A DNA stretch of 57,414 bases from an uncultured Clostridia bacterium (lineage in GTDB: Bacteria; Bacillota; Clostridia; Oscillospirales; Acutalibacteraceae). The notes under the pieces are model-generated. The model did no database searches, was not told the DNA's origin, and saw only the letters and a list, made by a program, of their open reading frames with translations. The stretch is taken from assembly GCA_947169745.1 (NCBI GenBank), contig CAMVQZ010000004.1, forward strand, positions 1 through 57,414, given 5' to 3'. The translations under genes were made by a program, and so were the position numbers. How positions within the stretch are numbered: the first letter of the stretch is position 1; every line of letters begins with the position of its first letter. Below, one piece after another: positions 3,848-17,059 of this stretch.

Positions 3848-3880
3848 TTTCTTCAATCCTTTCTTGATAAAATAACAACC

Positions 3881-3941
3881 TGCGGTCTGACCGCAAACAA
3901 TATAGTACCATAATTTTAACACACAATTTGATAAAATTCAA
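3881..3941 (-). promoter_or_regulatory. Promoter and leader hairpin of the 698-3847 gene
   Basis: On the minus strand TTGAAT (3941-3936) and TAAAAT (3918-3913) are 17 bp apart. The leader then forms a stem TGCGGT/ACCGCA (3881-3895) near the predicted 5' end of the transcript, followed by the ribosome site. Confidence 0.6.
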
Positions 3942-4007
3942 TATTTTTTCATCACATATGCATTAAATAATTCTACTTATTGCCTATCTGCGGCAAGCTG
4001 GCTGGGC

Positions 4008-4037
4008 TTTACAGTGGGAGTGGAGGGGTGGTATAAT
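4008..4037 (+). promoter_or_regulatory. Promoter of the EamA transporter gene
   Basis: TTTACA (4008-4013) and a perfect TATAAT (4032-4037) are 18 bp apart. Transcription would start near 4044, which supports ATG 4073 as the start rather than the upstream TTG that overlaps the -10 box. Confidence 0.6.
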
Positions 4038-4072
4038 TGTTTTGTTATTTTGAATCAGAAGGTTTAGATGAG

Positions 4073-5038
4073 ATGAAGAATAAAAAAATACTGGGAAATA
4101 TCATACTTATACTTGTGGCGGCTATATGGGGAACGGCCTTTGTTTTTCAGAGGGTGGGAATGGATAGCATAGAGCCGATGACCTTCAATGCTGCCAGAAT
4201 GACCCTTGCGGCTATAGCTATAGGAATGGTGACAATGTTCCGCAGGAGGAGATCAACTCCGGATAAGACCGGGGAGAAGGAGCGGGGGAAAAAGACAATT
4301 ATTATCGGCGGTATCTGCTGCGGAGCATTTCTTGCGCTGGGAAGTCTGTTTCAGTAGATGGGCCTGGTATATACTACTGCCGGCAAAGCAGGATTCATTA
4401 CAGCGCTGTATATACTGATCGTTCCGGTGATAGGTTTTCTGGTTTTCAGAAAGCGTAATACGTGGCTTGTCTGGCTGTCTGTGCTGCTGGGCATAGCCGG
4501 GATGTATCTGCTGTGTATAAACGAGGGCTTCAGTTTTTCCAGAGGAGATATACTGATCTGCATCTGTGCAGTTATGTTCAGCGGACATATTCTCTGCTGC
4601 GACTATTTTGCTGAACGGGGAGACCCGATCCTGATTTCAGCGATACAGTTTGCAGCAGCGGCGCTGATATCCTGGGTAGCAGCCTTTGTACTGGAAGCTC
4701 CCTCTGTGGATAAGCTGGAGTCTGCTGTTATACCAGTTTTATATTGCGGAGTGGTTTCGGGAGGAATAGGATATACCCTACAGATGGTGGCGCAGAAGCA
4801 TACAGAACCGGCGACAGCATCTCTTCTGATGAGCCTGGAATCGGTTTTTGCTGTTCTGACCGGCAGCATATTCCTCGGTGAACAGATGAGCCTCAGGGAA
4901 ACAGTCGGCTGCATTATAATGTTTGCCGCAATAATCCTGGTACAGCTTCCCGGAATGCCAGGAAAGAAGAAAGGGACTGGGAACATTGAGAATGAAGGGA
5001 GCTGTCAGATTAACGGCGAGGGTAAGACGATAGAGTGA
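4073..5038 (+). pseudogene. EamA/DMT-family permease interrupted by an in-frame TAG
   Basis: Two halves in one frame, 4073-4354 and 4358-5038, are separated only by TAG at 4355-4357. Together they make a full-length (about 320 residues), ten-helix drug/metabolite transporter of the EamA type. The first half has the typical N-terminal helix motif AAIWGTAFVFQRVGM and the second continues with TTAGKAGFITALYI. The residues around the stop read GSLFQ-stop-MGLVYTT; relatives usually have a second Gln here, so one CAG to TAG change explains it. An ATG directly after the stop could allow re-initiation. Everything else is intact, so the change is recent, is a sequencing error, or is tolerated. The substrate cannot be told. 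Confidence 0.8.
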
Positions 5039-5112
5039 TGGTGTTATATAGAGTAAAAAAAGCAGTTGATTTATGCCGGAGAGATCCGGCGTTGTAAAAC
5101 AAAATAACTACG

Positions 5113-5141
5113 GAGCAAGGCTTTTCGGCCTTGCTTTTTTT
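5113..5141 (+). terminator. Rho-independent terminator after the EamA gene
   Basis: GCAAGGC (5115-5121) pairs with GCCTTGC (5128-5134) and is followed by seven T. It isolates the phage-type cluster from upstream transcription. A smaller hairpin GCCGGA/TCCGGC lies at 5075-5090. Confidence 0.85.
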
Positions 5142-5177
5142 ATGCCCAAAAAATTTTTTTCGGGAAATTTCTGAAAA

Positions 5178-5197
5178 TTGACCCATCTGAGGGTCAA
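5178..5197. promoter_or_regulatory. Perfect inverted repeat ahead of the phage-type cluster
   Basis: TTGACCC (5178-5184), a 6-base spacer and GGGTCAA (5191-5197) lie 42 bp before the first gene of the cluster. The left arm resembles a -35 box but no -10 box follows at a good distance. This could be an operator; no regulator gene lies nearby. Confidence 0.4.
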
Positions 5198-5238
5198 AAA
5201 ACAGGCCCCAGGGGGTATTGGTGAAAGGAGGTGTGAGA

Positions 5239-5739
5239 ATGAAGAAAAAATCTGTTAATCTCACGCAAAGAGAAAAGCTTTTTTGCAGTACATTTGTCAG
5301 CTGCGGAAATTATAAAGAGGCACTGGCTGCTGCAGGATACAGATGTCCGGAAAGATCTTTGTCGCAGCTTCTTTCAAGGGACGATATAAACGAGGAGATA
5401 GACAGACTTCTTGCTATTCGCAGCAGAACCTCGGCAATGCTTGCCAGGGCAGGCTACGAAAGGCTGGCCTTCGGAGATATAACAGACGCTGTAAAGCTTA
5501 TCTTCAGGGACAGCATAGACAGTCAGGAGCTGGAAGGATATGATCTGTTTAATGTTTCGGAGATAAAACGTCCAAAGGACGGAGCAATGGAAATAAAGTT
5601 TTTCGACAGGGCTAAGGCACTGGAAAAGCTGGAAAGCATGGGCTCCGAAAATAAAACTACGATCCCGGATTTCTACTCTGCTCTTCTTCAGGGAGCCGGA
5701 GATGAAGATGACCAGCCCGGGGTCGGTGGGGGTGATTAA
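5239..5739 (+). CDS. Phage terminase small subunit (Terminase_2-like)
   Basis: A 166-residue protein that would recognise DNA for packaging and hand it to the large subunit. The N-terminal half (LTQREKLFCSTFVSCGNYKEALAAAGY) is the helix-turn-helix typical of the Terminase_2 / XtmA family, and the later part (FFDRAKALEKLESMG) matches the oligomerisation region. ATG 5239 is chosen because AAAGGAGGTG lies just upstream; a TTG at 5218 lacks such a site. The stop overlaps the start of the large subunit gene, which implies translational coupling. It is the first gene of a one-strand cluster running to 15688. Confidence 0.85.
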   Translation: MKKKSVNLTQREKLFCSTFVSCGNYKEALAAAGYRCPERSLSQLLSRDDINEEIDRLLAIRSRTSAMLARAGYERLAFGDITDAVKLIFRDSIDSQELEGYDLFNVSEIKRPKDGAMEIKFFDRAKALEKLESMGSENKTTIPDFYSALLQGAGDEDDQPGVGGGD

Positions 5740-6986
5740 TGATAATCAGAAGCTTTTCAAAAAAACAGCTCGGGGTGCTGAGCTGGTGGTGCAGGGGGAG
5801 TAAATATTCTGACTGTGACGGTATTATCTGCGACGGCGCAGTCAGAAGCGGAAAGACCTTGTGTATGAGCATTTCCTTTGCGAGCTGGGCAATGGCAGAC
5901 TTCTGCGGCGGCAGCTTTGCTGTATGCGGAAAAACTATTCGTTCTGCCAAAAGAAATATAGTCAGACCGATGCTGGAAATACTCCGGGATATAGGCTTTG
6001 AGGTGTGTGACAGATCCTCAATGAATTACTTTGAAGTATCATACCGAGGCAGAAAGAACACATTTTATATTTTCGGCGGACGGGATGAAAGTTCGGCTGC
6101 TCTTATCCAGGGTATTACGCTCTGCGGTGTGCTTTTCGACGAGGCTGCTCTTATGCCGCGCTCTTTTGTGGAACAGGCTGTCGCAAGGTGCTCAGTCGAG
6201 GGGTCTAAGCTGTGGTTCAACTGTAACCCTGAATATCCCCAGCATTGGTTCTGCACCGAATGGATAAAAAAGACAAAGGAGAAAAACCTGTGCTACTTTC
6301 ATTTCAGAATGGAGGACAATCCCTCTCTTTCGGAAAGGATGCTGGAGCGCTACCGGAGGATGTACAGCGGAAGCTTTTACGAAAGATATGTTCTTGGAAA
6401 GTGGACTGCAGCTGAGGGTCTGGTTTATCCCTTTATGTCAGATGACAATATGCTATGGGACAAACCTGCAGGAGAAGCGGAGGAATATGTTATATCCTGC
6501 GATTACGGAACAGTAAACCCCTCATCCTTCGGGCTTTGGGGACTATTCGGAGGTATCTGGTACAGACTGGAGGAATATTATTATAGCTCCCGCAGAGAAG
6601 GTATGCAGAGGACGGATGAGGAACATTATGCCGGACTTTGCAGGCTTGCAGGGGACAGGAATATCCGGGAAGTGATAATCGATCCTTCTGCTGCAAGCTT
6701 TATGGAAACAGTCAGAAGACACGGCAGGTACAGCGTGAGTGCGGCACGGAACAATGTTATTGACGGCATACGTCAGGTGAGCACAGCTCTGAAAGAGGGA
6801 AGGATCCGTATATGCCGCAGCTGCAGTGACAGTGTCCGGGAATTCGGACTGTATCGATGGGACAGAGCCGGCAGGGATATGCCGGTAAAGGAGAACGATC
6901 ACGCAATGGATGATATAAGATATTTTGTTGCAACATATCTGATGGATCGCGGCGAATCATTTTTTGCTGTAGCCGCAAAAAGATAG
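5739..6986 (+). CDS. Phage terminase large subunit
   Basis: The DNA-packaging motor, 415 residues. It has an ATPase with a Walker-A motif GAVRSGKT (residues 33-40) and Walker-B VLFDE (131-135), then a nuclease half starting at about 250 with an acidic SCDYG motif and further acidic residues near the end (HAMDD). Length and motifs are normal for a PBSX/SPP1-type TerL and nothing is missing. The gene starts within the stop of the small subunit gene and ends in TAG, with the ribosome site of the portal gene right behind. That TAG shows the codon works as a stop here, which bears on the in-frame TAG found in the last gene of the cluster. Confidence 0.92.
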   Translation: MIIRSFSKKQLGVLSWWCRGSKYSDCDGIICDGAVRSGKTLCMSISFASWAMADFCGGSFAVCGKTIRSAKRNIVRPMLEILRDIGFEVCDRSSMNYFEVSYRGRKNTFYIFGGRDESSAALIQGITLCGVLFDEAALMPRSFVEQAVARCSVEGSKLWFNCNPEYPQHWFCTEWIKKTKEKNLCYFHFRMEDNPSLSERMLERYRRMYSGSFYERYVLGKWTAAEGLVYPFMSDDNMLWDKPAGEAEEYVISCDYGTVNPSSFGLWGLFGGIWYRLEEYYYSSRREGMQRTDEEHYAGLCRLAGDRNIREVIIDPSAASFMETVRRHGRYSVSAARNNVIDGIRQVSTALKEGRIRICRSCSDSVREFGLYRWDRAGRDMPVKENDHAMDDIRYFVATYLMDRGESFFAVAAKR

Positions 6987-6996
6987 GAGGTGAAAA

Positions 6997-8145
6997 ATGG
7001 GTCTATTCGGAAGAAAACAAAAAAAGACCTCTCCGGGCTTCCTCGCAGTGCAGACCTCCCCGCCCGTAAATGAGCTGAGACTGGGGAGCAGGATATCCGG
7101 CGGACGGGGAAGCATCTGGGAAAACAGACTGTACAGAAGTCTGAGAGAGTCTGTGCCGGTGATAGACGCTGCAATATACAAGATTGTCCGTCTTACAGGC
7201 GGCTTTCAGGTCAGATGCAGTGACAGCAGGGCACAGGAGGCTATGGACAGTTTTGTGAAAAATGTCCGGGTCAATGGGATATCCGCAGGTCTTGCCGCTT
7301 TTGTGAATATTTATCTTGAGCAGCTCCTGACCTATGGCACTGCTGTGGGAGAGATAGTGCTGGGAGAGGATATGACCATAAAAGCCCTCTATAACAGCAA
7401 TATAAATGATGTCAGGCTCAGCTGCGGGGAAAATCCCCTTGATGTGGAAATAGGAGTGAGAGACAGCGCAGGAAATTACTCCGGAATAAAGCATCCGGAG
7501 CTTGTGGTGTGCAGTGCAATAATGCCGGAGCCGGGAAGTATATACGGAACATCCATCCTCAGAGGCCTGCCCTTTGTTTCTGATATATTGATGAAGATAC
7601 TCGGAGCTGTGGGCACAAACTGGGACAGAGTGGGAAATGTCCGGTTTGCTGTGACATACAGACCCGGGGAAAACGAAAGGAGCTTCGGCAGGGAAAGAGC
7701 CGCTCAGATAGCATCTGAATGGAGCAAGGCTATGAAGAGCAGCGACCCCAGAGATTTCATCTGCGTCGGAGATGTGGATATAAAAGCCATTGGCGCGGAT
7801 AATCAGATACCTGACTGCGCTGTTCCTATCAGGCAGATAATGGAGCAGATAACAGCAAAGCTTTCCATACCGCCGTTTCTTTTAGGATTATCCTGGTCGA
7901 CTACCGAGAGGATGTCTACACAGCAGGCTGATATGCTTACAAGCGAGCTGGAATATTACAGAAGAATACTGGAAGCGCCTGTCAGAAAAATATGTTCCGG
8001 ATTTCTGAGACTGGAGGGCTTTGACGACAGCCTTGATATCATCTGGGATAATATCAACCTGCAGGATGAGGTCGAGCTTGCAAAGGCAAGGCTCTATAAC
8101 GCACAGGCTGAGGAAAAGGAAATAAATAACAGAAAGGAAGGATAA
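6997..8145 (+). CDS. Phage portal protein
   Basis: 382 residues, short for a portal but with the right content and position. It lies directly after the large terminase and before the capsid protease. The C-terminal part (IPPFLLGLSWSTTERMSTQQADML, then a long helix ending in AKARLYNAQAEEKEI) matches the crown and helical region of SPP1/Gp6-like portals. It would form the ring through which DNA enters the capsid. Ribosome site AGGAGGTG precedes ATG 6997. The family assignment rests on position and the C-terminal pattern, so the exact subfamily is uncertain. Confidence 0.8.
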   Translation: MGLFGRKQKKTSPGFLAVQTSPPVNELRLGSRISGGRGSIWENRLYRSLRESVPVIDAAIYKIVRLTGGFQVRCSDSRAQEAMDSFVKNVRVNGISAGLAAFVNIYLEQLLTYGTAVGEIVLGEDMTIKALYNSNINDVRLSCGENPLDVEIGVRDSAGNYSGIKHPELVVCSAIMPEPGSIYGTSILRGLPFVSDILMKILGAVGTNWDRVGNVRFAVTYRPGENERSFGRERAAQIASEWSKAMKSSDPRDFICVGDVDIKAIGADNQIPDCAVPIRQIMEQITAKLSIPPFLLGLSWSTTERMSTQQADMLTSELEYYRRILEAPVRKICSGFLRLEGFDDSLDIIWDNINLQDEVELAKARLYNAQAEEKEINNRKEG

Positions 8146-8146
8146 T

Positions 8147-9073
8147 TTGACAGGAGACATCAGAGAGGGAGAACTGGAGCTTATAAATAAGTATACAGGC
8201 AGAGAGCTGGGAGAAAATGAGGTCTATGCATTCAGCGTTGTCCTTTGCGACAATGAAATAGACAGAGACTTTGAAAGGTTTTCTCCGGAAGCTCTGGAAA
8301 AACTGGGTGAGCTGTTTGTTGGAGTTACAGGACTGATGGATCATGACCCGAAAAGCGGGAATCAGTCCGCAAGGATATTCTCCTGCAGCGTCAGGAAAAT
8401 AAGGGACAGAATGACTTCCGACGGAAAGCCATATGCAAGGCTGGAAGCAAGAGCCTATATTCCTGTGCACGAGGGAAGCAGGACTCTTATAAGCGAGCTT
8501 GACGGAGGAATAAAAAAGGAAGTCAGCGTTGGCTGCTCAGTGCGGAGAAGGATATGCTCTGTATGCGGAGGAGAATACGGCAGCTGTGGACATATCAAGG
8601 GCACAAAATATAAAAACAGGTTGTGCTTTGCAACACTGGAGGACCCTACAGACGCCTATGAATGGTCGTTTGTCGCAGTGCCTGCCCAGAAGCAGGCAGG
8701 GGTGATAAAAAACTATACGGGAGGAACTGAAATGGATATAGAAAAGAGACTGTTTGAGGGATGTCCTCAGACCTTTACGGCGGATGAGATGAATATTCTG
8801 GCTGAAAAATACAGGCAGCTTAATGAAAAGGCTGCGGATGGGGAAGCCTACAGAAGAAAGCTGGAGCGTATGATAAACAAAACAGCAGCTGTGGCTCTTC
8901 CGGGAATCAAAAAGGATATTTTAGACCTTATGATCAGAAATATGAATGCAAGCCAGCTGGAGGAGCTTTATTCCGCTTTTGCGGAAAAGGCCGGAGGAAC
9001 ATGGGGAAAGCCACAGCTTTCGGCCGTAGGCGGAGCAGCTGACTTATCAAACAGAGAATATACAAGTATTTAA
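8147..9073 (+). CDS. Capsid maturation protease with scaffold domain and zinc-finger-like insert
   Basis: 308 residues, TTG start at 8147 behind GGAAGGA. Residues about 25-200 look like the prohead protease fold: a His in LMDHD (H66) and a Ser in VSVGC (S127) sit at the usual catalytic spacing. Straight after the Ser is an unusual cluster CSVC...CGH (C137, C140, C147, H149) that could bind zinc. The C-terminal third is helical and charged, as in scaffolding proteins. An in-frame ATG with its own strong ribosome site at 8719-8724 suggests the scaffold is also made separately (see 8732-9073). It would cut the scaffold and the capsid N terminus during maturation. Confidence 0.75.
   Translation: MTGDIREGELELINKYTGRELGENEVYAFSVVLCDNEIDRDFERFSPEALEKLGELFVGVTGLMDHDPKSGNQSARIFSCSVRKIRDRMTSDGKPYARLEARAYIPVHEGSRTLISELDGGIKKEVSVGCSVRRRICSVCGGEYGSCGHIKGTKYKNRLCFATLEDPTDAYEWSFVAVPAQKQAGVIKNYTGGTEMDIEKRLFEGCPQTFTADEMNILAEKYRQLNEKAADGEAYRRKLERMINKTAAVALPGIKKDILDLMIRNMNASQLEELYSAFAEKAGGTWGKPQLSAVGGAADLSNREYTSI
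8732..9073 (+). CDS. Nested in-frame scaffolding protein
   Basis: An internal ATG at 8732 in the frame of the protease gene is preceded by GGGAGG (8719-8724) at 7-base spacing, as good a site as any in the cluster. It would give a 113-residue protein, mostly helical and charged (EKYRQLNEKAADGEAYRRKLERM). The arrangement copies the lambda C/Nu3 and related nested protease-scaffold genes, where the short product builds the procapsid and is then digested. It is inferred from the ribosome site and the family precedent. Confidence 0.6.
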   Translation: MDIEKRLFEGCPQTFTADEMNILAEKYRQLNEKAADGEAYRRKLERMINKTAAVALPGIKKDILDLMIRNMNASQLEELYSAFAEKAGGTWGKPQLSAVGGAADLSNREYTSI

Positions 9074-9086
9074 GGAGGAATTATTT

Positions 9087-9422
9087 ATGAATGTATGCTT
9101 TAACGGATTCAAGGAAAATACAGTAACATTTGAAGCAGGGGCAGCAATAGACAAGGGTGCTCCGGTAATGATAACGGACAACGGAACTGTTTCGGCGGCT
9201 TCGGGAAAATTCTGCGGCTTCTGTGCCGGATACAGGGACGGCTATGCAGCAGTCCAGCTCAGCGGCTATGTGAGAGCATCCTACAGCGGAACAGCTCCTG
9301 CAGTCGGCTTTACAAAGCTTTCGGCTTCCTCAGGCAAGGTGGCCGCAGACAACAGCAACGGCAGGGAATATCTTGTCACAGATGTGGATACAACCGGCAA
9401 AACAGTCGGAATAATTCTTTAA
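9087..9422 (+). CDS. Small capsid accessory or decoration protein (DUF2190-like)
   Basis: 111 residues, rich in Gly, Ala, Ser and Thr, with short beta-strand patterns (AIDKGAPVMITDNGTVSAASG). The composition and the place between scaffold and major capsid genes match the DUF2190 capsid-stabilising proteins. Ribosome site AAGGAGGAAT precedes ATG 9087, and the gene ends TAATAG. It probably trims or decorates the capsid surface. The assignment is by pattern and position only. Confidence 0.65.
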   Translation: MNVCFNGFKENTVTFEAGAAIDKGAPVMITDNGTVSAASGKFCGFCAGYRDGYAAVQLSGYVRASYSGTAPAVGFTKLSASSGKVAADNSNGREYLVTDVDTTGKTVGIIL

Positions 9423-9438
9423 TAGGGAGGAGAATAAT

Positions 9439-10449
9439 ATGGCATATTTTGATTCGATAAAACTTGAAAAGGGAATGTACACGAACGGTACAAAATCATT
9501 TTCGCAGATATTGGAGGAAATGGATCCCTCGGAAAACTACAGGAATACGGAGCTGGAGGGTCTGGACGCTTTTCAGAGACAGCTCAAGAGATTCGATATC
9601 AAGGTAGGGGGAAGTCGTTCTGACTGCGTTCAGAAATTTTTCCAGACCTCGGACAGCGCAGCACTTTTCCCGGAATATATTTCAAGAGCGGTTAAACAGG
9701 GAATGGAAGCTTCCGATGTGCTTTCGGATATTATTGCGGCAAAGACCATTATAGAGGGACTGGATTACCGCTCTGTAGTATCCGATCCTTCCGATGACGA
9801 AAAGTCTCTGAAGCCTGTGGCTGAGGGAGCTGCTCTTCCCAGCACCACTATCAGGACCGGAGATCACCTTGTAAAGCTTCAGAAGAGAGGCAGAATGCTG
9901 GTGGCTTCCTATGAGGCTGTCAAATTCCAGAAGCTGGATCTCTTTACTGTGGCTCTCCGACAGATCGGCGCACACATTGCAAGAGAACAGATAAAGGATG
10001 CTGTTGATGTACTTGTGAACGGCGACGGAAACAGCCCTGCGGCACAGACTATATCCGCACAGACCAGCGGAAGCATTTCATACGGAGATCTTATTTCTCT
10101 CTGGGGAGCGCTTTCACCCTATGAGCTGAATACTTTCCTTGCGCCAACAGGAGCAATGACCAAGCTTTTGTCCCTCAGCGAAATGAGAGATCCTCGTGCA
10201 GGTCTTGATTTTCACTCTACAGGAAAGATGATAACTCCTCTCGGAGCAGGACTTCATCACGTACCGGGAATCAGCGGCGATAAGCTTATTGCTCTTGATA
10301 AAAACTGCGCCCTTGAAATGGTACAGTCCGGAGAGGTTGTGACAGACCACGACAAGCTTATAGACAGACAGCTGGAAAGAGCATCTATCAGCACTATCAC
10401 CGGTTTTGCAAAAATCTTCCCCGATGCTGTCAGGGTGCTTACATACTGA
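9439..10449 (+). CDS. Phage major capsid protein (HK97 fold)
   Basis: 336 residues, the shell protein. It has an N-terminal arm (1-100), an E-loop region (GRMLVASYEAVKF), a helix with AREQIKDAVDVLVNGDG and a beta-rich end (AKIFPDAVRVLTY), all in normal order for the HK97 fold. It follows protease, scaffold and decoration genes as expected. Ribosome site GGGAGGAGAA precedes ATG 9439. The gene looks intact, with no stop or frameshift. An encapsulin is unlikely because terminase, portal and connector genes flank it. Confidence 0.85.
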   Translation: MAYFDSIKLEKGMYTNGTKSFSQILEEMDPSENYRNTELEGLDAFQRQLKRFDIKVGGSRSDCVQKFFQTSDSAALFPEYISRAVKQGMEASDVLSDIIAAKTIIEGLDYRSVVSDPSDDEKSLKPVAEGAALPSTTIRTGDHLVKLQKRGRMLVASYEAVKFQKLDLFTVALRQIGAHIAREQIKDAVDVLVNGDGNSPAAQTISAQTSGSISYGDLISLWGALSPYELNTFLAPTGAMTKLLSLSEMRDPRAGLDFHSTGKMITPLGAGLHHVPGISGDKLIALDKNCALEMVQSGEVVTDHDKLIDRQLERASISTITGFAKIFPDAVRVLTY

Positions 10450-10463
10450 CAGGAGGTCTGGGG

Positions 10464-10826
10464 ATGAATACGGAGAAGGTATACAGTATTTTCTCCCGTC
10501 TGTCCGGGCTCAGGGATACCGAGCTTTTAAGATATACATTTTTGTGCGAGACTTCCGCAGGCTATGTGGTTTCCCGGCTCAGGGATAAGACGGCGGCGGC
10601 CTGCAGCGGCGGCAAGGTGGAGTTTGCTGCCGCCGCTCTCGCATATTACAGATATATTCTTTGCCAGCTGACGGATGGGGAAACCGGCGAGGTGAAAGTT
10701 GGAGATATCGCTGTAAAAAAGGATGCCGTAAGCATACTGGGCTCGGCTGAGAAGATCTGCCGGGAAGCATTCAGGGATATCGGCGATCTTCTTACGACGG
10801 AGGATTTTTATTTCAGGGGGGTCTGA
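10464..10826 (+). CDS. Head-tail connector / head completion protein
   Basis: 120 residues, mainly helical (LRDTELLRYTFLCETSAGYVVSRL, then LAYYRYILCQL). It directly follows the major capsid gene, where phages of this type encode the adaptor that docks under the portal. Ribosome site AGGAGGTCTGGGG precedes ATG 10464. No catalytic motif is visible. The name rests on position and on helical content. Confidence 0.6.
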   Translation: MNTEKVYSIFSRLSGLRDTELLRYTFLCETSAGYVVSRLRDKTAAACSGGKVEFAAAALAYYRYILCQLTDGETGEVKVGDIAVKKDAVSILGSAEKICREAFRDIGDLLTTEDFYFRGV

Positions 10827-10827
10827 T

Positions 10828-11154
10828 ATGAAGGATATTGAAATGGCAATAAGCGTCCTGGGAACAGGTATGACAGCAAGAACAGCCAGGGGTACATACA
10901 GAGGTCTGGGAGTTGTGAGCCCGGTAAGAGAAATAAAGAATTCCGACTCGGGAGAAAATGTCATTCCGGAGGGAATATGCTCTCCGGAGGATGTCCTTAT
11001 ATACGCAGACCGGAATTTTATCGGCAGGCTTTCCAGAGGTGATAAGGTCACAAGCAGCGGAAATGAATATTATATATTGCGGGCATATGACCGGGTATGC
11101 AGATACGGAGATCATGTCATCTGTGTTGCGAGAAGGGGCGGTGACGTAAAGTGA
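10828..11154 (+). CDS. Head-closure-like protein
   Basis: 108 residues, beta-rich, with the segment RLSRGDKVTSSGNEYYILRAYD, a pattern common in head-closure (stopper) proteins. It starts one base after the previous stop and overlaps the next gene by 4 bp (GTGA). Its place between adaptor and tail terminator matches the usual order. The family is not securely recognised. Confidence 0.55.
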   Translation: MKDIEMAISVLGTGMTARTARGTYRGLGVVSPVREIKNSDSGENVIPEGICSPEDVLIYADRNFIGRLSRGDKVTSSGNEYYILRAYDRVCRYGDHVICVARRGGDVK

Positions 11155-11570
11155 CAGCTGCGGATATTTTTCTGGACAGACTGAGGGATGATCCTGAGAC
11201 AGGTGAGGTTACGTTTGTTTCTGCCGGCAGCGGGGATATCCTGCCTTATCCTGTCACCAGGGCTGTGGCTAGTATCGGAATGAAAAATCAGGACAGGAGC
11301 CGGCTTATAGGTGACGATCAGGGATATATGGCATCCGGAGAGATGGAGATGACAGTTCTGTCTCCGGAAAAGGGGGGAGCTGAAGCGTGTCTGGAGCATA
11401 CGGAAAGAATAGTGGACAGAATACGTCAGGCGGATGAGGAGGGGATGATCATATCAGTCTCCCTTGATAAATATAGCTACGACAAAGCTGCCGGAGCCTT
11501 CCGGATCGTAACAGGCTTCCGGCTTGCAGAAAAAAGAGTGTGCGGAGGTGACAGCTATATTGACAGATAG
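11151..11570 (+). CDS. Tail terminator / tail completion-like protein
   Basis: 139 residues from GTG 11151, overlapping the previous gene by 4 bp. The N-terminal helix (AADIFLDRLRDDPETGEVTFVSAG) and the alternating strands fit small tail-terminator proteins that cap the tube. In contractile phages the sheath gene normally comes next, but here the next gene is tube-like and only 127 residues, so no sheath is encoded. The gene ends in TAG (11568-11570), a second case of TAG acting as a real stop in this cluster. Confidence 0.5.
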   Translation: MTAADIFLDRLRDDPETGEVTFVSAGSGDILPYPVTRAVASIGMKNQDRSRLIGDDQGYMASGEMEMTVLSPEKGGAEACLEHTERIVDRIRQADEEGMIISVSLDKYSYDKAAGAFRIVTGFRLAEKRVCGGDSYIDR

Positions 11571-11943
11571 TCAGCGCATATATGCGAAGGATGTGAGTAT
11601 CAGCATTGACGGAAAAAAGCTTTTACAGGCGGAAGCAGCGGAAATAAGAAAAAAGTCGGTGCTGCATAGTATCAGAACGTGTTTTTCAGGTAATGATGTG
11701 GCACATATCAGAAAAAGCGAAGTATACAAGGCGAATCTGAGATGTATTGTTTTTAAAAAGCCCTTTGAAAACTGCGGCTTCTCCGATCTGGATAATTTTA
11801 CGATGGTGCTCACAACCGACAAGGAAAGAATTACCCTGTCAGGATGTATGTGGGATGATTTTTATTATACGGCAGACAAGGGGAAATTCAGTGAATTTAT
11901 CAGCGTTACAGCACTGAATATGAAAAGGGAGGTGTTGTTTTGA
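11560..11943 (+). CDS. Tail tube-like protein
   Basis: 127 residues. TTG 11560 is chosen because GGAGGTG (11544-11550) lies 9 bases upstream; it overlaps the previous gene. The sequence is beta-rich (KDVSISIDGKKLLQAEAAEI at the start, EFISVTALNMKREVLF at the end), as in tube proteins. It is in the tube position of PBSX-type clusters (xkdM place), directly before a tiny gene and the baseplate hub genes. It could instead be a tube-initiator protein of the baseplate. Confidence in the exact role is moderate. Confidence 0.5.
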   Translation: MTDSQRIYAKDVSISIDGKKLLQAEAAEIRKKSVLHSIRTCFSGNDVAHIRKSEVYKANLRCIVFKKPFENCGFSDLDNFTMVLTTDKERITLSGCMWDDFYYTADKGKFSEFISVTALNMKREVLF

Positions 11944-12080
11944 CTGAAAATGAAATACCGGATATACCGGAGGAAACAGATGACGGCGCAGTACTCAGGA
12001 GGATATCAGAGCTTCTGAGGGCTGATATTATGAGATACAGCAGAAAGCTGGATGCAGAGGAGGAGATATATGAGAACTGA
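11940..12080 (+). CDS. 46-residue helical protein in the tape-measure / chaperone slot
   Basis: From TTG 11940, overlapping the tube gene stop, a short frame runs to TGA 12078-12080 and overlaps the next gene. GGGAGG (11927-11932) is a strong ribosome site. The protein is acidic at the start (MTENEIPDIPEETDD) and then a helix (AVLRRISELLRADIMRYSRKL). In PBSX-like phages this slot holds a tail chaperone and a tape measure of many hundred residues; here only this small frame exists. It may be a chaperone remnant or a miniature tape measure. Function unknown. Confidence 0.5.
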   Translation: MTENEIPDIPEETDDGAVLRRISELLRADIMRYSRKLDAEEEIYEN

Positions 12081-12594
12081 CAGGAAAATGAGCTTCAGGG
12101 ATTTCATATTTCCGGTCAATCCGTCTGTAATCAAAATAGAAGGAAAGAGAAATCTCAGTATCTCCCCTGTCCCCGGAGGAATGGATAACATAAGTGATAA
12201 CGGCAGGCATTGTATGAGTATCAGGGGACAGGGTGAGTTTTTCGGAGAGGATTGCTGTGAAAGCTTCAACAGACTGAAAACTCTTTTTGAGGAGGGTAAG
12301 GCAGGTATGCTTTATATACCGTCCCAGAGACCGGTATTTGCATTTTTCAGCAGGCTTGAAATGACGGCGGAGGATATTGAGGATGTGATAGGCTACAGCT
12401 TTGAATTCCGGGAGATACCGGGAGGCTTTTCATATCACAGGGAACAGTCTGCTGAATACGGGGACGGGAAAAGCAGTCTGTGGGATATATCCTACAGGCT
12501 GGGGATACATATTGATCTTCTTGTCAGTCTCAATCCCCATATAAAGCGTCCGGATATCCCGGTAATGCCCTGGGAGAAGGTGATCCTTTGCTGA
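12070..12594 (+). CDS. LysM baseplate protein (XkdP-like)
   Basis: 174 residues. ATG 12070 is used because GAGGAGGAG lies right upstream. The C-terminal 45 residues form a LysM motif (SSLWDISYRLGIHIDLLVSLNP, then VMPWEKVIL), the peptidoglycan-binding module carried by XkdP and gp53-like baseplate proteins. The N-terminal 110 residues match the structural part of that family only loosely. It probably attaches the hub to the tube end. It overlaps the next gene by 7 bp and is the first of six genes in PBSX order (xkdP to xkdU). Confidence 0.75.
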   Translation: MRTDRKMSFRDFIFPVNPSVIKIEGKRNLSISPVPGGMDNISDNGRHCMSIRGQGEFFGEDCCESFNRLKTLFEEGKAGMLYIPSQRPVFAFFSRLEMTAEDIEDVIGYSFEFREIPGGFSYHREQSAEYGDGKSSLWDISYRLGIHIDLLVSLNPHIKRPDIPVMPWEKVILC

Positions 12595-13502
12595 GAATAG
12601 TATTATCTGATATCAGGGGCAGGGAAAAGCGTATGGATGAAACTGTTTCACTGAGTATTATTTCCTCCTGGGACGCCCCGGCGGACAGCCTGAGGGCAGT
12701 ATTCCCGGTAAGGGGATGCATTCGTGAATATACGGATATAAGTGTCTTTCTGGGAAATGAATTATTCTTCTCCGGAATTGTGGATGAGCAGAATGAGGAA
12801 ACGGGAGAAAAGGGTCATTTCCTTGAGATCAGGGCAAGAAGCAGAGAGGCGGTGCTCCTGGATAATGAGGCAAGACCGGAGACATTATGTCTGGCAGACG
12901 GAGAACTCATATTTGAAAGGCATTTCAGGGAGCTGGGTTTTTCGGGGATAAAGGGCGGAAAGTTACCTTGCGGCGGTGAACTGGTCATATCAAAGGGGAT
13001 GAGTGAATGGGATGTTCTGGAGGAATACTGCAATAAATTTACCGGTACAAGACCGGTGATACATAATGACGGAATGATAGATGTCAGCGGAGGGAACAAC
13101 AGCGCTCTGATAATGCTTTCCCCGGATAAGATAGGATATGTAAAGAAATGTCTGAGACGGAGCGGAGTTATCTCGGAAATATTTGCAAGGACATACAATG
13201 CCGGAGGATATGAAATGAGACTGACCGGGAATCTGGCGGAGAGGAAGAAAATCCGGAGAAGAAGATTTGTCAATGTCTTTGAAACAAAAGGAAGAAGCGT
13301 CGGGGCGGCCAGGGAACTGATAACAAGATCGGAAAAGGTTTATGAAAGCCGTATCATTGGGTACAGGGAACTTTTGTCCTGCAGACCGGGAGACCGGATC
13401 AGGATAAGAGGAGAAAAGAATGATCTGAGGATAAAGGAGGTGCATCTTTCGGTGGATGCAAAAGGATGCAGGACAAGAATATATGCGGAGGTGGAAAGCT
13501 GA
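12588..13502 (+). CDS. Baseplate hub protein (XkdQ / late control D-like)
   Basis: 304 residues from TTG 12588, behind GGGAGAAGG. The protein is beta-rich and ends in the pattern YRELLSCRPGDRIRIRGEKNDLRIKEVHLSVDAKG, typical of gpD/XkdQ hub proteins, where a small barrel precedes the C terminus. It would form the hub at the tube tip. The stop overlaps the start of the next gene by one base. Length is close to XkdQ. No lysozyme domain is fused to it. Confidence 0.7.
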   Translation: MLRIVLSDIRGREKRMDETVSLSIISSWDAPADSLRAVFPVRGCIREYTDISVFLGNELFFSGIVDEQNEETGEKGHFLEIRARSREAVLLDNEARPETLCLADGELIFERHFRELGFSGIKGGKLPCGGELVISKGMSEWDVLEEYCNKFTGTRPVIHNDGMIDVSGGNNSALIMLSPDKIGYVKKCLRRSGVISEIFARTYNAGGYEMRLTGNLAERKKIRRRRFVNVFETKGRSVGAARELITRSEKVYESRIIGYRELLSCRPGDRIRIRGEKNDLRIKEVHLSVDAKGCRTRIYAEVES

Positions 13503-13840
13503 TGTGGATATCAAGAAATATTCTTGACAGAAAAGCTACAGGAAAAATAGCAGCCGCCGGTTCAGTGGGATACGGGACTGATACCAGGGTCTCTTCTGTA
13601 ACATCGGAGGGGAAGGGACGATGCGAAATTGTCAACCCTCCCGGATATTACAGCATCCCGAAGCAGAATTCCGATGTGGCAGTTATACCTGCGAGAGAGG
13701 GTATGATGTGCATCGGGGTAAGGTCTCCGGTGGTGGAGGATGAGTTTGAACCGGGGGAAATAGTGTTGAGATCGGATGGAGGAGCTGTGATAAAGCTCTC
13801 AAATGACGGAAATGTTTATGTGAATGGAGAGGTGATCTGA
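13502..13840 (+). CDS. Baseplate spike / gpV-like protein (XkdR position)
   Basis: 112 residues. ATG 13502 follows GGAGGTGG (13486-13493). The sequence has an OB-fold-like run (SSVTSEGKGRCEIVNPPGYYSIPKQNSDVAVIP) and a short beta-helix-like end (GGAVIKLSNDGNVYVNGEVI), as in small spike proteins that close the tube. It sits between hub and gp25-like genes, where PBSX has xkdR. It stops at TGA 13838-13840, and the next gene continues in the same frame. Confidence 0.6.
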   Translation: MWISRNILDRKATGKIAAAGSVGYGTDTRVSSVTSEGKGRCEIVNPPGYYSIPKQNSDVAVIPAREGMMCIGVRSPVVEDEFEPGEIVLRSDGGAVIKLSNDGNVYVNGEVI

Positions 13841-14170
13841 ACGGATACTGCACTTGGTAATAACGGAGATTATAAAAAGGACAGCGGCGGAGCATATCTT
13901 ATCGGCGGAAGAAAAGAACTGCTTCAGAGAATATATATTGCCGTCTGCGCCCGCAGGGGAGGATTTATTTATGACCGGGAGCTGGGCAGCGGTGTTCCGG
14001 AGATAAACAGAAACGAACCAGGCGCTCAGGAACGTATTGAGGCTCTTGTAAGGGAAGCTGTCAGAGAAGAAAATCCGGAGGTGGATCTCGTTGTAATCAC
14101 CTTTGCCCATACAAGGATAAGGGTGGATATTAACGGCTCGAAATCATTTATTATTCTGAAGGAGGTATGA
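13841..14170 (+). CDS. gp25 / XkdS-like baseplate wedge protein with ACG start
   Basis: A 109-codon frame begins directly after the stop of the spike gene and has no ATG, GTG or TTG start near its beginning. The first codon after the stop is ACG (13841), preceded by GGAGAGGTGAT at normal spacing, so the ancestral start was probably ATG with a T to C change. The protein reads TDTALGNNGDYKKD, then KELLQRIYIAVCARRGGFIYDRELGSG, a gp25/DUF2634-like wedge pattern, and ends IRVDINGSKSFIILKEV. The frame is otherwise intact. Either ACG is used weakly, the spike gene is read through, or the gene is dead. It sits in the xkdS place, just before the baseplate J gene. Confidence 0.7.
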   Translation, partial: TDTALGNNGDYKKDSGGAYLIGGRKELLQRIYIAVCARRGGFIYDRELGSGVPEINRNEPGAQERIEALVREAVREENPEVDLVVITFAHTRIRVDINGSKSFIILKEV

Positions 14171-14171
14171 T

Positions 14172-15224
14172 ATGGGTATCAGTTATGATGAAATACTTGA
14201 AAGAATGTCAGATGAATTTGAACTGCAGAGCGGATATGAAGCCGCAAGCCAGTCTGATATCGGGATACGTCTGAAGCTTCTGGCCGGGGAAATATTTGCG
14301 CTGTCGTGCAATATAGAATGGCTGAAAAAAGAAATGTTCCCCGATACTGCTACCGGAGAAATGCTGGATAAGCACGGTGAGCAGAGGGGGATTTTCAGGG
14401 AGAGAGGAAACAAGGCCAGCGGAAATATTGCTGTCAGTGTGGATGTGCCTCTTGATTATGATATTGTTATCCCGGCAGGAACGGTGTTTACTACCTCGGA
14501 CGGCCGGCTGGATTTTGTATCAACGGAGGAGGCTGTTATATACAGGGGAACTTCTTTGTGTACCGTCAGCGCCGAAGCAGTAAAAAGCGGCAGACAGTAT
14601 AATGTTGCTCCCGGAGAAATAACTACAGTTGTTACATATTTTTCTATCGGAGTCAGCGTCAGTAATTCCGGGGCATTCAGAGGAGGCTCGGAGGATGAAA
14701 CGGATGAAAGTCTGAGAAAAAGAATTGCGGACAGAATAAGAAATATACCAAATGGAGTGAACAAAGCATTTTTCGAGGATATGATCAAAAATGTGGAGGG
14801 CGTGAATTCTGTGAAGCTCGTGGAGGATAATGCTACCGGTCTTTCCATATATCTCTGCGGCAGGGGCAGCGGTGTGGATATGGATGTTATCAGAGCTGTC
14901 CGGGGGCTGATAGATGAAAGAAAATGTATCGGCTATAATTACAGCGTCTACAGTTCCAATCCCTTCCAGCAGGATGTTACTGTCAGGATAACTGTCAGGG
15001 ACGGCTTTGTATATTCCGATGTGAGCCAGGAGGTAAGAGCAGTGATAGATGAATTCTTCCTTGATGCCAGAGCAGGACAGGGTCTTGTTTTAGCAGAGCT
15101 GGGAAGCAGGATTATAAGTGTTCCCGGGGTGGAAAACTATGAATTCGTAAATATGACCGACAGAAGCATCGGGAATAGTCAGTTCCTTGCTCCGGGAACA
15201 ATAACCATAGAAAGAAGGCAGTGA
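14172..15224 (+). CDS. Baseplate J-like protein (XkdT-like)
   Basis: 350 residues, normal for the family. It matches baseplate J in order: an N-terminal helical part, a central beta region (IPAGTVFTTSDGRLDF and YNVAPGEITTVV), the segment GGSEDETDESLRKRIADRIRN that is nearly diagnostic, and a C-terminal domain ending with a typical strand. It joins wedges around the hub in contractile-type baseplates. ATG 14172 follows AAGGAGGTATG, and the stop overlaps the next gene. Presence of this protein without any sheath gene is odd. Confidence 0.9.
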   Translation: MGISYDEILERMSDEFELQSGYEAASQSDIGIRLKLLAGEIFALSCNIEWLKKEMFPDTATGEMLDKHGEQRGIFRERGNKASGNIAVSVDVPLDYDIVIPAGTVFTTSDGRLDFVSTEEAVIYRGTSLCTVSAEAVKSGRQYNVAPGEITTVVTYFSIGVSVSNSGAFRGGSEDETDESLRKRIADRIRNIPNGVNKAFFEDMIKNVEGVNSVKLVEDNATGLSIYLCGRGSGVDMDVIRAVRGLIDERKCIGYNYSVYSSNPFQQDVTVRITVRDGFVYSDVSQEVRAVIDEFFLDARAGQGLVLAELGSRIISVPGVENYEFVNMTDRSIGNSQFLAPGTITIERRQ

Positions 15225-15226
15225 TT

Positions 15227-15688
15227 ATGGATGTTTTGACAATGCTCCGGGAAAAGCTGGATGGATGCGGTCTTTATGATCTGCAGCAGGGCACTGTCGT
15301 TTATGCAGAGCTTGCGGCATACGCTGCGGGACTGCAGATGATATATGACCAGCTGGAGGAACTGGAAAGAGAATTATTCATCACTACCGCTGAGGACAGG
15401 GGGCTTTAGGTATATGAAAAAATGCTGGGGGCATATAATACAGACAGCAGCCTTCAGGGACGAAGAAACAGTCTTATCAGTGCCTTTTCAATAACCAACA
15501 GCGATCATTCCCGGAATGGTATGGGGCTGATCCCGGGAATATATAATGTTGATGGAGAATTTACAATGGATAACGGAGATCTGGTGTTTACCTGCAGCGA
15601 TAGTCTTACACAGGAGCAGGCGGAAAGAATCGGCTCTCATATGGAAATATTCAGACCGCTTCTGCGGGGCTTCAGGTTTGAGACATAA
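15227..15688 (+). pseudogene. DUF2313 / XkdU-like tail protein interrupted by an in-frame TAG
   Basis: Two segments in the same frame, 15227-15406 and 15410-15688, are split only by TAG at 15407-15409. The join reads TTAEDRGL-stop-VYEKMLG, within the most conserved part of DUF2313 proteins, where relatives usually have a polar residue. The combined 153 residues are about the family length. AAGG (15215-15218) supports ATG 15227; a GTG at 15221 overlaps the previous stop. There is no ribosome site before the ATG at 15422, so the second part would not be made without read-through. It is the last gene of the cluster, with no tail fibre or lysis gene after it. Confidence 0.75.
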
Positions 15689-15717
15689 AAAAACGGCTGC
15701 CCGTTTATGGGCAGCCG
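15687..15717 (-). terminator. Terminator of the 15744-16514 gene, perhaps bidirectional
   Basis: CGGCTGCCC (15694-15702) pairs with GGGCAGCCG (15709-15717). On the minus strand seven T follow. It separates the convergent phage-type cluster and surface-protein gene. Confidence 0.85.
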
Positions 15718-15743
15718 AAACTGTTTATTCAGTTCTCAGGATA

Positions 15744-16514
15744 TCAGTCCTTAGCAGAAGCCTTCTTAGTCATAACAACTGCAGTACCGAGAGAAGCAAG
15801 AACTACAGCTACGAGAGCGATAGCAGATGTTGTGTCGCCTGTAGCAGGTGTTGTCTCGTCAGCGTCGCCTGTTGTATCAGCGGGAGACTCTTCTGTTGTA
15901 TCCTCAGCAGGAGCTTCTTCCTTTGACTCCTCAACAGGAGCTTCTTCCTTTGACTCCTCAACAGGAGCTTCTTCCTTTGACTCCTCAGCAGGAGCTTCGT
16001 CCTTTACGATCTCATATGTAACATAAAGGAATTCAAAGTCGAGATCCTCATAACCAGCTGCAACAGCTGCAGGATCGTTGTGCTTTGTATCGAAGAGAAC
16101 CTTGAACTTGATCGGCTCGCCTTCCTTAGCTTCCTTTACATATACGTTGGACTGGCTGTTCTGTGTACGAACGTGCTCAGGCTCATACATACCCCAGCTT
16201 GCATCCCAAGCGCCGTCAAGACGAACCTTGAACTGGAGATAGTTCTTGCCCTGGGGCTTATCGTCCTGGCTCCACTCTGTGATCCACTCTTTCTTTACTT
16301 CCTTGATGTCAACGATAGCCTCATAAACGCCGTCGCCGTCATCATCTGTCATAGCGATATCGTCTTTCCAATCGTTGAATCCACCAACAACACCGATCTT
16401 GTGCTTCGGAAGGTCTTCAAGTGTAGCAGCTGATACGCTGATTGATGCTGTTGCAGCTACTGAAGCTACGAGAGCTGTTGAAAGAGCTGCAGCTAAAATC
16501 TTTGACTTTTTCAT
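15744..16514 (-). CDS. Surface protein with one starch-binding-like (X25/E-set) module
   Basis: 256 residues: signal peptide (1-29), one module of about 130 residues (VGGFNDWKDDIAMTDDDGDG, FKVRLDGAWDASWG), three to four repeats of an 11-residue EESKEEAPVE unit, then TPATGD, a hydrophobic helix and a lysine-containing tail. The module resembles the X25/CBM48-like domains of pullulanases and the modules of the two larger genes downstream (18031 and 20860). The end looks like a sortase signal without the usual Leu-Pro. It is inferred to hold starch at the surface. Start chosen on AGGAGG 8 bases upstream. It is transcribed towards the phage-type cluster. Confidence 0.8.
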   Translation of the reverse strand: MKKSKILAAALSTALVASVAATASISVSAATLEDLPKHKIGVVGGFNDWKDDIAMTDDDGDGVYEAIVDIKEVKKEWITEWSQDDKPQGKNYLQFKVRLDGAWDASWGMYEPEHVRTQNSQSNVYVKEAKEGEPIKFKVLFDTKHNDPAAVAAGYEDLDFEFLYVTYEIVKDEAPAEESKEEAPVEESKEEAPVEESKEEAPAEDTTEESPADTTGDADETTPATGDTTSAIALVAVVLASLGTAVVMTKKASAKD

Positions 16515-16542
16515 TAGTAAATCCTCCTAAAAATTAATTAAT

Positions 16543-16607
16543 GAAACTTCAATGAAAACATAAGTTTCGTTAATAAAGATTATACTATGTTTGATCGTAA
16601 AAATCAA
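16543..16607 (-). promoter_or_regulatory. Promoter and leader hairpin of the 15744-16514 gene
   Basis: On the minus strand TTGATT (16607-16602) and TATAAT (16584-16579) are 17 bp apart. Ten bases later the leader forms GAAACTT/AAGTTTC (16568-16543) with a 12-base loop, followed by an A/T-rich stretch and AGGAGG. Confidence 0.75.
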
Positions 16608-17059
16608 GATAGATTTTATGAAAAAAATTACCATATAATACCTTTGTAAGATATTCTTTCCGGTACAGCTGTGAGCTGAAAACCCGGCAGGGAAAACAGA
16701 TTATTATTTTTTGTTGTAAATCACCAAATGAGCAAGGCTGAATTTAATAAAAATGCCGATGTACAAAAACCGCTGATGTGTTTCATTGTATAAAACAACG
16801 AAATAATAACGAAAATGATAAATCCGAAGCACGAAATAGCCTAAATGTAACAAAAAAGAAATAATTATTACAATAATGATGAGCGCACATCAGGTGCGGA
16901 TTGTATATTTTATACAAAAGTCTGAAAGTTGATTCTGACTGAATCAGGCGTATGGTTCCAGGGGTTGTGATGTACCAGAGAAAAAACTTACATTATAATA
17001 AGAAACACAAGGAATATAACAGTCAAAGTGTATACATCAGCCCCAGGTAAAGGAAGAAA
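16608..17059. other. Non-coding AT-rich spacer with three adjacent hairpins
   Basis: No gene is visible here. Three perfect hairpins follow one another: CGCAC/GTGCG (16884-16898), TTGTATA/TATACAA (16901-16917) and GATTC/GAATC (16931-16945). They lack a clear promoter or T-run, so whether they are transcribed is unknown. Confidence 0.5.

What the first reader, a model, noticed from the sequence alone, without database searches (positions are those of the whole stretch)
5239..15688. Compact phage-particle locus without sheath, full tape measure, fibre, lysis or integration genes
Sixteen genes on one strand, many overlapping, run in PBSX order from small terminase to DUF2313. Yet the sheath place (between tail terminator and tube) and the tape-measure place (between tube and LysM protein) are closed by overlapping genes, so nothing was simply cut out in the middle. 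There is no repressor, integrase, replication, holin, lysin or fibre gene, and base composition is like the host's. A gene-transfer-agent-like or other domesticated particle is possible; a decaying prophage is the alternative.
Basis: partly seen in the sequence, partly recalled or inferred. Interest (0 to 1): 0.75.

Follow-up and report, generated by a model that had tools for sequence, protein, structure and literature searches.

The report
Stub-tailed domesticated phage particle cluster
A ten-kilobase set of phage head and tail-base genes has been kept and passed down by a large group of gut bacteria instead of behaving like a virus; it lacks the parts for a long contracting tail and probably makes small particles that carry pieces of the bacterium's own DNA.

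Summary
In detail: one strand, TerS to DUF2313, no sheath, no tape measure, no integrase or lysis gene found beside it. It is not one strain's decaying prophage. Its terminase is in 63 of 64 genus genomes; 129 of 133 loci with six or more cluster genes share order and strand. The capsid gene is in 58 of 345 order genomes, one locus each except one genome, and in 1 of about 279 genomes outside the order. The head-gene tree contains all 12 strong rpoB splits, with no strong conflict. dN/dS is 0.03-0.08 for TerL and capsid. In 126 distinct loci, 29 with a sheath have 0.5-1.9 kb in the tape-measure place; 97 without have 0.04-0.25 kb, bar one. So sheath and tape were lost together while tube, terminator and a Mu-type baseplate stayed. 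Best reading: a gene-transfer-agent-like viriform with a stub tail that works like Faecalibacterium FpGTA (PMC12946183); homology to FpGTA could not be tested. Packaging and delivery of DNA are inferred. In this assembly the last gene has an in-frame TAG absent from 99 comparable loci. A conserved palindrome lies just upstream.

The parts
5178..5197 (.). Palindrome TTGACC-N-GGTCAA, 42 nt 5' of the TerS ATG; candidate operator or attenuator hairpin of the cluster
   Evidence: position; motif within 250 nt 5' of TerS in 30 of 37 genus loci, window included; 9 of 12 pairs change on both sides in 38 selected relatives
5239..5739 (+). Small terminase TerS
   Evidence: PF03592, E 5.7e-14
5739..6986 (+). 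Large terminase TerL
   Evidence: PF03237 E 2e-13; phrog_2 E 9e-48; match in 63 of 64 genus genomes
6997..8145 (+). Portal
   Evidence: phrog_30703 E 1.6e-124
8147..9073 (+). Probable head maturation protease / scaffold (role inferred from place and sequence)
   Evidence: phrog_16951 (unknown function) E 1.4e-90
9087..9422 (+). Head decoration-like protein; not found in some relatives
   Evidence: phrog_4588 virion structural protein E 1.1e-20
9439..10449 (+). Major capsid protein
   Evidence: PF25209 E 8e-15; phrog_3922 E 1.6e-96
10464..10826 (+). Head-tail connector candidate (g7)
   Evidence: Place only; found in 130 loci, duplicates included
10828..11154 (+). Head-tail connector candidate (g8)
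   Evidence: Place only; found in 122 loci, duplicates included
11151..11570 (+). Tail terminator (g9)
   Evidence: AlphaFold pLDDT 88; Foldseek top hit an unassigned Salmonella protein, then phage terminators (R4C, T5 p142, lambda gpU), E about 1e-3
11572..11943 (+). Tail tube protein (start uncertain, ORF from 11524)
   Evidence: pLDDT 90; best PDB hits phage 812, Mu and diffocin
11940..12080 (+). 46-codon ORF in the tape-measure place (g11); candidate tape or chaperone remnant
   Evidence: found in 97 loci, duplicates included; its profile weakly (E<=0.01) marks a longer ORF at this place in sheath-bearing L242
12070..12594 (+). LysM tail/baseplate protein
   Evidence: PF01476 E 6e-4 (just below cut-off), PF07157 E 0.006 (below cut-off)
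12588..13502 (+). Baseplate hub
   Evidence: phrog_177 E 1.9e-7
13502..13840 (+). Small baseplate protein, spike-like by eye (not tested)
   Evidence: phrog_25991 unknown function E 5e-12
13841..14170 (+). gp25-like baseplate wedge (start codon unclear)
   Evidence: phrog_120 E 1.5e-5, phrog_43 E 0.002
14172..15224 (+). Baseplate J wedge
   Evidence: PF04865 E 1.1e-39, phrog_6 E 4.6e-60
15221..15688 (+). DUF2313/Gp48-like baseplate gene, split here by in-frame TAG at 15407-15409
   Evidence: frame; one ORF in 99 of 99 loci with both halves; the matching gene of L118 hits PF10076 E 9e-14; the window halves themselves have no strong family hit

Best explanation
The cluster is a domesticated, vertically inherited phage-particle operon, a gene-transfer-agent-like viriform of a gut/rumen clostridial order. 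Mechanism, step by step. (1) TerS-TerL fill a small procapsid (portal, protease-scaffold, capsid, decoration) with host DNA [inferred from gene content and from FpGTA]. (2) The terminator and tail tube make a very short neck-like tube, because the tape-measure space shrank to 46 codons and the sheath is gone [loss shown; particle shape inferred]. (3) A Mu-type baseplate (LysM protein, hub, spike-like, gp25-like, J, DUF2313) sits almost directly under the head and docks on the recipient without contraction [inferred]. (4) Fibre and lysis functions come from other loci or from host enzymes [not found]. (5) The particle delivers host DNA to kin, and that benefit, not self-spread, keeps the genes under purifying selection [selection shown, benefit inferred].
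For: Near-fixation: TerL in 63 of 64 genus genomes, 26 of 26 good ones; 202 of 300 family genomes at E<=1e-10, of which I count 171 at E<=1e-140 in the table; capsid in 28 of 34 family genomes and 30 of 311 others of the order (membership list), 1 of about 279 outside the order. Order and strand alike in 129 of 133 loci with six or more genes. rpoB and head-gene trees of 29 genomes: 15 of 26 splits shared (shuffles mean 0.24, max 4), 12 of 12 strong rpoB splits recovered, 10 of 11 strong head-gene splits in rpoB, no strong conflict. Low dN/dS. A sheath lies at the matching place in 14 of 20 loci from other families and is absent from 64 genus and 25 family genomes. Sheath and tape space vary together in 126 distinct loci. 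The best 80 of 446 IMG/VR relatives lie on contigs of at most 31 kb. FpGTA, a 10.5 kb operon of Faecalibacterium, goes with about 40 nm particles without identifiable tails and about 9 kb of DNA (PMC12946183, section 9 read).
Against: No particle, packaged DNA or transfer was observed. DUF2313 is broken by TAG in this assembly. No fibre gene in the genus: profile 0 of 64, without an independent positive control; lysis genes were not searched genome-wide. The capsid is missing from 6 of 34 family genomes and most sampled genomes of the order, so it is dispensable. Capsid relatives without other cluster genes exist: L107 (64%) and L121 (45%, on a 71 kb record), perhaps real phages. TerL alone is common in phages, up to about 52% in named ones. 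PBSX keeps a head yet does not inject DNA (stated in PMC12946183). Neighbouring genes differ between clades.
Confidence: 0.68

Rival explanations
1. Domesticated particle with another job: a killer particle like PBSX, or a device that releases or protects DNA, without delivering it to recipients.
For: Same conserved genes and selection; PBSX is described as acting as a tailocin in PMC12946183; no fibre gene found in the genus.
Against: A tailocin needs no head, yet TerL and capsid have among the lowest dN/dS; sheath and tape, the machinery of contractile tailocins, are the parts lost.
Confidence: 0.22
2. Decaying prophage remnant.
For: In-frame TAG in DUF2313 here; no integrase or lysis gene among flanks scanned, no fibre gene found.
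Against: Same set present in dozens of species, low dN/dS, congruent trees.
Confidence: 0.04
3. Active small phage, satellite or helper-dependent element that still moves between hosts.
For: Different chromosomal neighbours between clades; IMG/VR holds 446 such stretches as viral; capsid relatives L107 and L121 occur without the cluster.
Against: No mobility or replication gene found in the cluster or scanned flanks; single locus in nearly all genomes; 12 of 12 strong rpoB splits recovered.
Confidence: 0.03
4. Sheath and tape measure are supplied in trans from another locus, so the particle has a normal contractile tail.
For: Own genome has a contractile-injection-system-like locus on contig C28; GTA genomes are often spread over several loci.
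Against: The cluster-type sheath is absent from 64 genus genomes while the same profile finds it in four genomes outside its own alignment; tape space shrinks with sheath loss. A distant sheath would be missed by this profile.
Confidence: 0.03

Closest known systems
FpGTA of Faecalibacterium (PMC12946183)
   Same: About 10.5 kb operon with TerS, TerL, portal, scaffold and capsid genes; no replication genes; [quoted passage not shown] hosts of related families (my recollection); particles without identifiable tail
   Different: FpGTA has a second operon with baseplate, fibre and lysis genes; here a baseplate set is in the main cluster and no second locus was found. Sequence homology untested. 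Accession numbers RCH50851 (portal) and RCH50849 (capsid) suggest one gene between them; the window has two
PBSX of Bacillus subtilis
   Same: Gene order (recalled); GTA-like element of a Gram-positive host
   Different: PBSX has sheath, tape measure, fibres, lysis and regulators (recalled); none of these was found here
Mu-like phage FP_Mushu (MG711460)
   Same: Order of tail genes: terminator region, tube, LysM/GpU place, hub, gp45-like, wedge, J, gp48-like (annotation)
   Different: Mushu has a sheath (1446 nt), tape measure (2388 nt), transposases, endolysin and holin
Alphaproteobacterial RcGTA-type GTAs
   Same: Vertical inheritance, head-tail cluster derived from phage
   Different: Independent origin expected; siphovirus-type tail with tape measure (recalled); different hosts

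Membership tests
Gene transfer agent (definition in PMC9662315) | Caudoviricete-derived proteins that form particles | tested here: inconclusive
   Protein similarity met; particle formation not testable
Gene transfer agent (definition in PMC9662315) | Mostly random host DNA is packaged | not testable with these tools
   Needs purified particles
Gene transfer agent (definition in PMC9662315) | Genome fully endogenized in the host | tested here: met
   TerL match in 63 of 64 genus genomes, cluster among host genes in the window
Gene transfer agent (definition in PMC9662315) | Own genome not fully packaged because the head is small | not testable with these tools
   Head size unknown
Gene transfer agent (definition in PMC9662315) | Vertical inheritance and co-diversification with host | tested here: met
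   12 of 12 strong rpoB splits in the head-gene tree, no strong conflict, 29 genomes, one host marker
Gene transfer agent (definition in PMC9662315) | DNA delivered to other cells | not testable with these tools
   Needs a transfer assay
FpGTA lineage | Sequence homology of capsid and portal to RCH50849.1 and RCH50851.1 | tested here: inconclusive
   No Faecalibacterium sequence reached; phage Mushu transposase and a recalled 16S probe (0 of 345) did not identify one
FpGTA lineage | Second operon with fibre, holin, endolysin | tested here: inconclusive
   Fibre profile 0 of 64; lysis genes not searched genome-wide; 798 kb of own genome sampled with cluster profiles only
Functional temperate phage (PBSX- or Mu-type) | Integration/transposition, repressor, replication, lysis genes | tested here: not met
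   None among the cluster genes or the 20 other window ORFs scanned
Contractile-tailed (myovirus-type) particle | Sheath and tape measure | tested here: not met
   No cluster-type sheath in 64 genus genomes; tape place holds 46 codons

The most novel reading that the evidence does not exclude
A single ancient GTA lineage has co-diversified with a whole order of gut clostridia. Its ancestor had a short contractile tail. In the window's family sheath and tape measure were lost together, giving a podovirus-like particle built from myovirus parts: tube and terminator reduced to a neck, with a complete Mu-type baseplate docked under the head. Other branches went further, to hub-only or head-only clusters, and FpGTA is one branch. 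A dedicated palindrome upstream of terS gates the operon by attenuation or by its own regulator.
Probability: 0.5. Interest if true: 0.85.

Novelty: new variant of a known kind. Interest (0 to 1): 0.75.

Why it matters
GTAs are known from few lineages and, outside Alphaproteobacteria, mostly without an evolutionary record. If this is one, several families of gut and rumen bacteria share an inherited DNA-packaging machine, and the series sheath-bearing, sheathless, tube-less, hub-only shows how a phage tail is dismantled under host control. It would also mean that many of the 446 IMG/VR stretches with this capsid (only the best 80 were listed) are host gene clusters rather than viruses.

Tried and rejected
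First rpoB tree used wrong-strand ORFs in some genomes and was discarded; one search replaces it. Genetic recoding of TAG was considered, because two neighbouring genes (EamA transporter, DUF2313) have in-frame TAG. It was rejected: relatives have mixed residues at the DUF2313 site, no readthrough excess in 457 kb of own genome, no CUA tRNA in 400 kb. A LexA-type box upstream of TerS: three patterns, 0 of 138 regions. A second GTA locus marked by the same palindrome: the only other match in 798 kb lies inside a coding gene of a contractile-injection-system-like locus, so chance. Finding Faecalibacterium through phage Mushu's transposase (best 80% identity) and through a recalled 16S probe both failed. 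No capsid relative in the PDB by sequence. PADLOC: no hits for 6 cluster proteins. Rfam: no hits in 5000-15800. Fibre scan of IMG/VR: 49 loci, no separate fibre-plus-lysis locus was worked out from it.

Limits: the tree uses one host marker and three cluster genes in genomes chosen because they carry the cluster; dN/dS pairs overlap in species and are often saturated at synonymous sites; many relatives are metagenome-assembled; counts on loci depend on contig ends and, where said, include duplicates. The 38 palindrome regions and the T-runs were picked by a script that demanded a hairpin and T's, so pairing and T excess there are partly by selection; one search repeats the count without that demand, though with a motif read from some of the same sequences. 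Literature searches: (open-access PMC only); only PMC12946183 was close. Papers: PMC12946183 abstract, passages and sections 9, 10, 26; PMC9662315 passages and section 3; PMC11150451 abstract and section list.
Full report
WHAT IS THERE. The window is contig 4 of a 2.53 Mb, 177-contig genome. Between 5239 and 15688 one strand carries TerS, TerL, portal, a protease/scaffold candidate, a decoration-like protein, the major capsid protein, two connector candidates, tail terminator, tail tube, a 46-codon ORF, a LysM protein, hub, a small baseplate protein, a gp25-like wedge, baseplate J and a DUF2313-like gene. Two are named here by fold: the terminator (the top Foldseek hit is an unassigned Salmonella protein, followed by R4C, T5 and lambda terminators at E about 1e-3) and the tube (pLDDT 90; phage 812, Mu and diffocin). 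Twenty other window ORFs scanned give host families or, for two, nothing: EamA and ZIP transporters, starch-binding and amylase proteins, oxaloacetate decarboxylase, quinolinate metabolism and so on; none is an integrase, repressor, holin or lysin. The last cluster gene is split by an in-frame TAG at 15407-15409.

HOW WIDE. TerL finds a match in 63 of 64 genus genomes and 26 of 26 of the good ones. The missing one is 80% complete. Six genomes gave two matches: in two these are pieces of one gene (G013 at contig ends, G029 adjacent with stops), and in four the second match is another terminase at 50-56% identity whose locus shows no other cluster gene (L021, L022, L038, L039). I read 40 genus loci; apart from those four, all 36 have the cluster genes in the same order and strand, five of them cut by contig ends. 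Over all mapped loci with six or more genes, 129 of 133 keep the order; the four others (L177, L199, L200, L202) have the capsid before the protease; L248 and L239, mapped, are also rearranged in the head part. In the family, 202 of 300 genomes match TerL at E<=1e-10; by my count of that table 171 are at E<=1e-140, and the weaker ones may be other phages' terminases, since named phages reach about 52% identity. The capsid profile is more specific: 58 of 345 order genomes, being 28 of 34 of the family and 30 of 311 of other families, one locus each except G278 with two. In the class draw 1 genome outside the order matched, of about 279 (291 less the 12 of the own order that head the table). Names from genome contigs: uncultured Ruminococcus and Clostridia from rumen and gut, Faecalispora, Clostridium sporosphaeroides, Anaeromassilibacillus (best 80 of at least 581). 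The family name Acutalibacteraceae is my recollection for these hosts, not a tool result. Among 12 phage records with the capsid, five unannotated human-faecal 'Bacteriophage sp.' have 56-65% identity and the seven named phage records at most 28%. Against a purely domesticated family stand L107 (capsid 64%) and L121 (45%, 71 kb record), where no other cluster gene was found in the 10-12 kb read, and L251, a distant portal-protease-decoration-capsid set in another setting.

VERTICAL DESCENT. I compared rpoB with three concatenated cluster genes (protease, capsid, g7) in 29 genomes (15 genus, 6 family, 8 other families; a 30th, G044, gave no rpoB match). 15 of 26 splits are shared against a shuffle mean of 0.24 and maximum 4. 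All 12 rpoB splits with support of at least 95 are in the cluster tree, 10 of its 11 strong splits are in rpoB, and no strong conflict exists. Neighbouring genes recur within groups of loci but differ between groups, so the locus has moved or its surroundings were rearranged on occasion.

SELECTION. In the eight closest pairs by capsid, Nei-Gojobori dN/dS is 0.034-0.075 for TerL, 0.034-0.058 for capsid, 0.105-0.178 for baseplate J (six pairs); the loosest genes reach about 0.3. The pairs share species, and several dS values exceed 1 or are infinite, so the ratios are rough. In the window itself the DUF2313 stop stands against full function: 99 of 99 loci with both halves have one ORF (duplicates included).

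HOW THE TAIL WAS LOST. The key comparison is with other families. L118 has the same order plus a sheath gene between terminator and tube (PF17482 E 2e-5, PF04984 E 4e-4, both below Pfam's cut-off). So do 14 of 20 loci fetched from other families. A profile of these sheaths finds it in G412, G440, G558 and G629, none of them in the profile though of the same genus as one of its rows, and in G634, which is a row; it misses G644, G373 and G395; it finds it in 0 of 25 family genomes and 0 of 64 genus genomes. Over 132 distinct loci with capsid, hub and J (14 duplicates dropped), 29 with sheath have 539-1860 nt between tube and LysM hits, 97 without have 39-253 nt save L352 at 547, whose ORF-level gap is 79; six more gave no tube hit, three of them (L190, L336, L349) no terminator hit either. 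Sheath and tape space thus go together. Some loci are reduced further: L248-L250, L199 and L202 keep head genes, small tail proteins and hub; L158, L189 and the faecal record L234 keep the head and connector part only, L158 running into nusA-infB. A short fibre-like gene follows DUF2313 in 27 loci, none of them a genus locus; its profile matches 0 of 64 genus genomes (no independent positive control).

MECHANISM. Shown: gene content, predicted folds of tube and terminator, losses, descent, selection. Inferred: small heads filled with host DNA by TerS-TerL; a tube of one or two rings, since a tape of 46 residues at about 0.15 nm per residue (recalled rule) would span some 7 nm; a Mu-type baseplate placed under the neck; delivery without contraction; release through lysis genes elsewhere. 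FpGTA supports the inference: its operon is 10.5 kb, particles are about 40 nm with no identifiable tail, DNA runs at about 9 kb, and 8.4-8.9 kb Faecalibacterium fragments are seen in faecal particles (PMC12946183, section 9). That paper also reports 4.6 kb packaging in Ruminococcus callidus without naming an operon for it, and says delivery is unproven. I could not test homology to FpGTA.

UPSTREAM SIGNAL. A palindrome, TTGACC-N-GGTCAA, lies at 5178-5197, 42 nt before the TerS ATG. The motif occurs within 250 nt 5' of TerS in 30 of 37 genus loci, window included; seven lack it. In 798 kb of the own genome it occurs once more, inside an unrelated coding gene. In 38 aligned regions, chosen because a hairpin had been found, 9 of 12 pairs change on both sides, 45 cells against 13.2 shuffled, 0 of 500 shuffles as high, and sliding the partner loses it. 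In the wider set 62 of 139 upstream regions have a perfect hairpin with T's, against 0-3 in shuffles and 10 of 417 random stretches. After the motif T makes 5.9 of 8 bases, before it A makes 3.5 of 8. That resembles an intrinsic terminator, but the window's copy has no T-run, so an operator is equally possible. Caulobacter GTA is controlled by an activator and anti-termination (PMC11150451, abstract), which makes the attenuator reading worth a test.

VERDICT. Domesticated and vertically inherited: about 0.93. Gene transfer as the function: about 0.68. Known kind (GTA), new variant: myovirus parts without sheath and tape, across several families of an order, with graded reduction. Prior art found in nine searches: only FpGTA is close.

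Noticed in passing
window 4037-5038: The EamA-type transporter gene just upstream is also split by an in-frame TAG (4355-4357). Two TAGs in 11 kb are odd because TAG ends only 14 of 325 long ORFs sampled, but no sign of recoding was found.
   Followed up: partly
L427 (G000:C28) 407-18743: A contractile-injection-system-like locus in the same genome: LysM protein, VgrG-like hub and spike, two large J-like proteins, PAAR-like protein (named by eye; J profile E 1e-6 and 2e-5).
   Followed up: partly
L248, L249, L250, L199, L202: Strongly reduced relatives: TerS, TerL, portal, protease, capsid, connector, small tail proteins and one hub-like protein, about 7 kb.
   Followed up: partly
L107 7341-8363; L121 1-273 and 6444-7382: Capsid relatives (64% and 45%) with no other cluster gene found around them; L121 lies on a 71 kb viral record with two capsid-like ORFs and may be a true phage.
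   Followed up: partly
L158 9473-20430: Head-and-connector-only relative placed directly before nusA and infB.
   Followed up: no
IMG/VR loci L090-L122, L318-L372; GenBank MT835952, MT836604, MT835508, MT835769: Many database 'virus' records hold this chromosomal cluster or part of it; useful to know for virome counts.
   Followed up: partly
L021, L022, L038, L039: Second, different terminases in four genus genomes, probably ordinary prophages elsewhere.
   Followed up: no
window 18031-22659 and 36317-40867: Starch-binding and alpha-amylase proteins with CBM26 and X25 modules near the cluster, suggesting a starch-degrading host.
   Followed up: no
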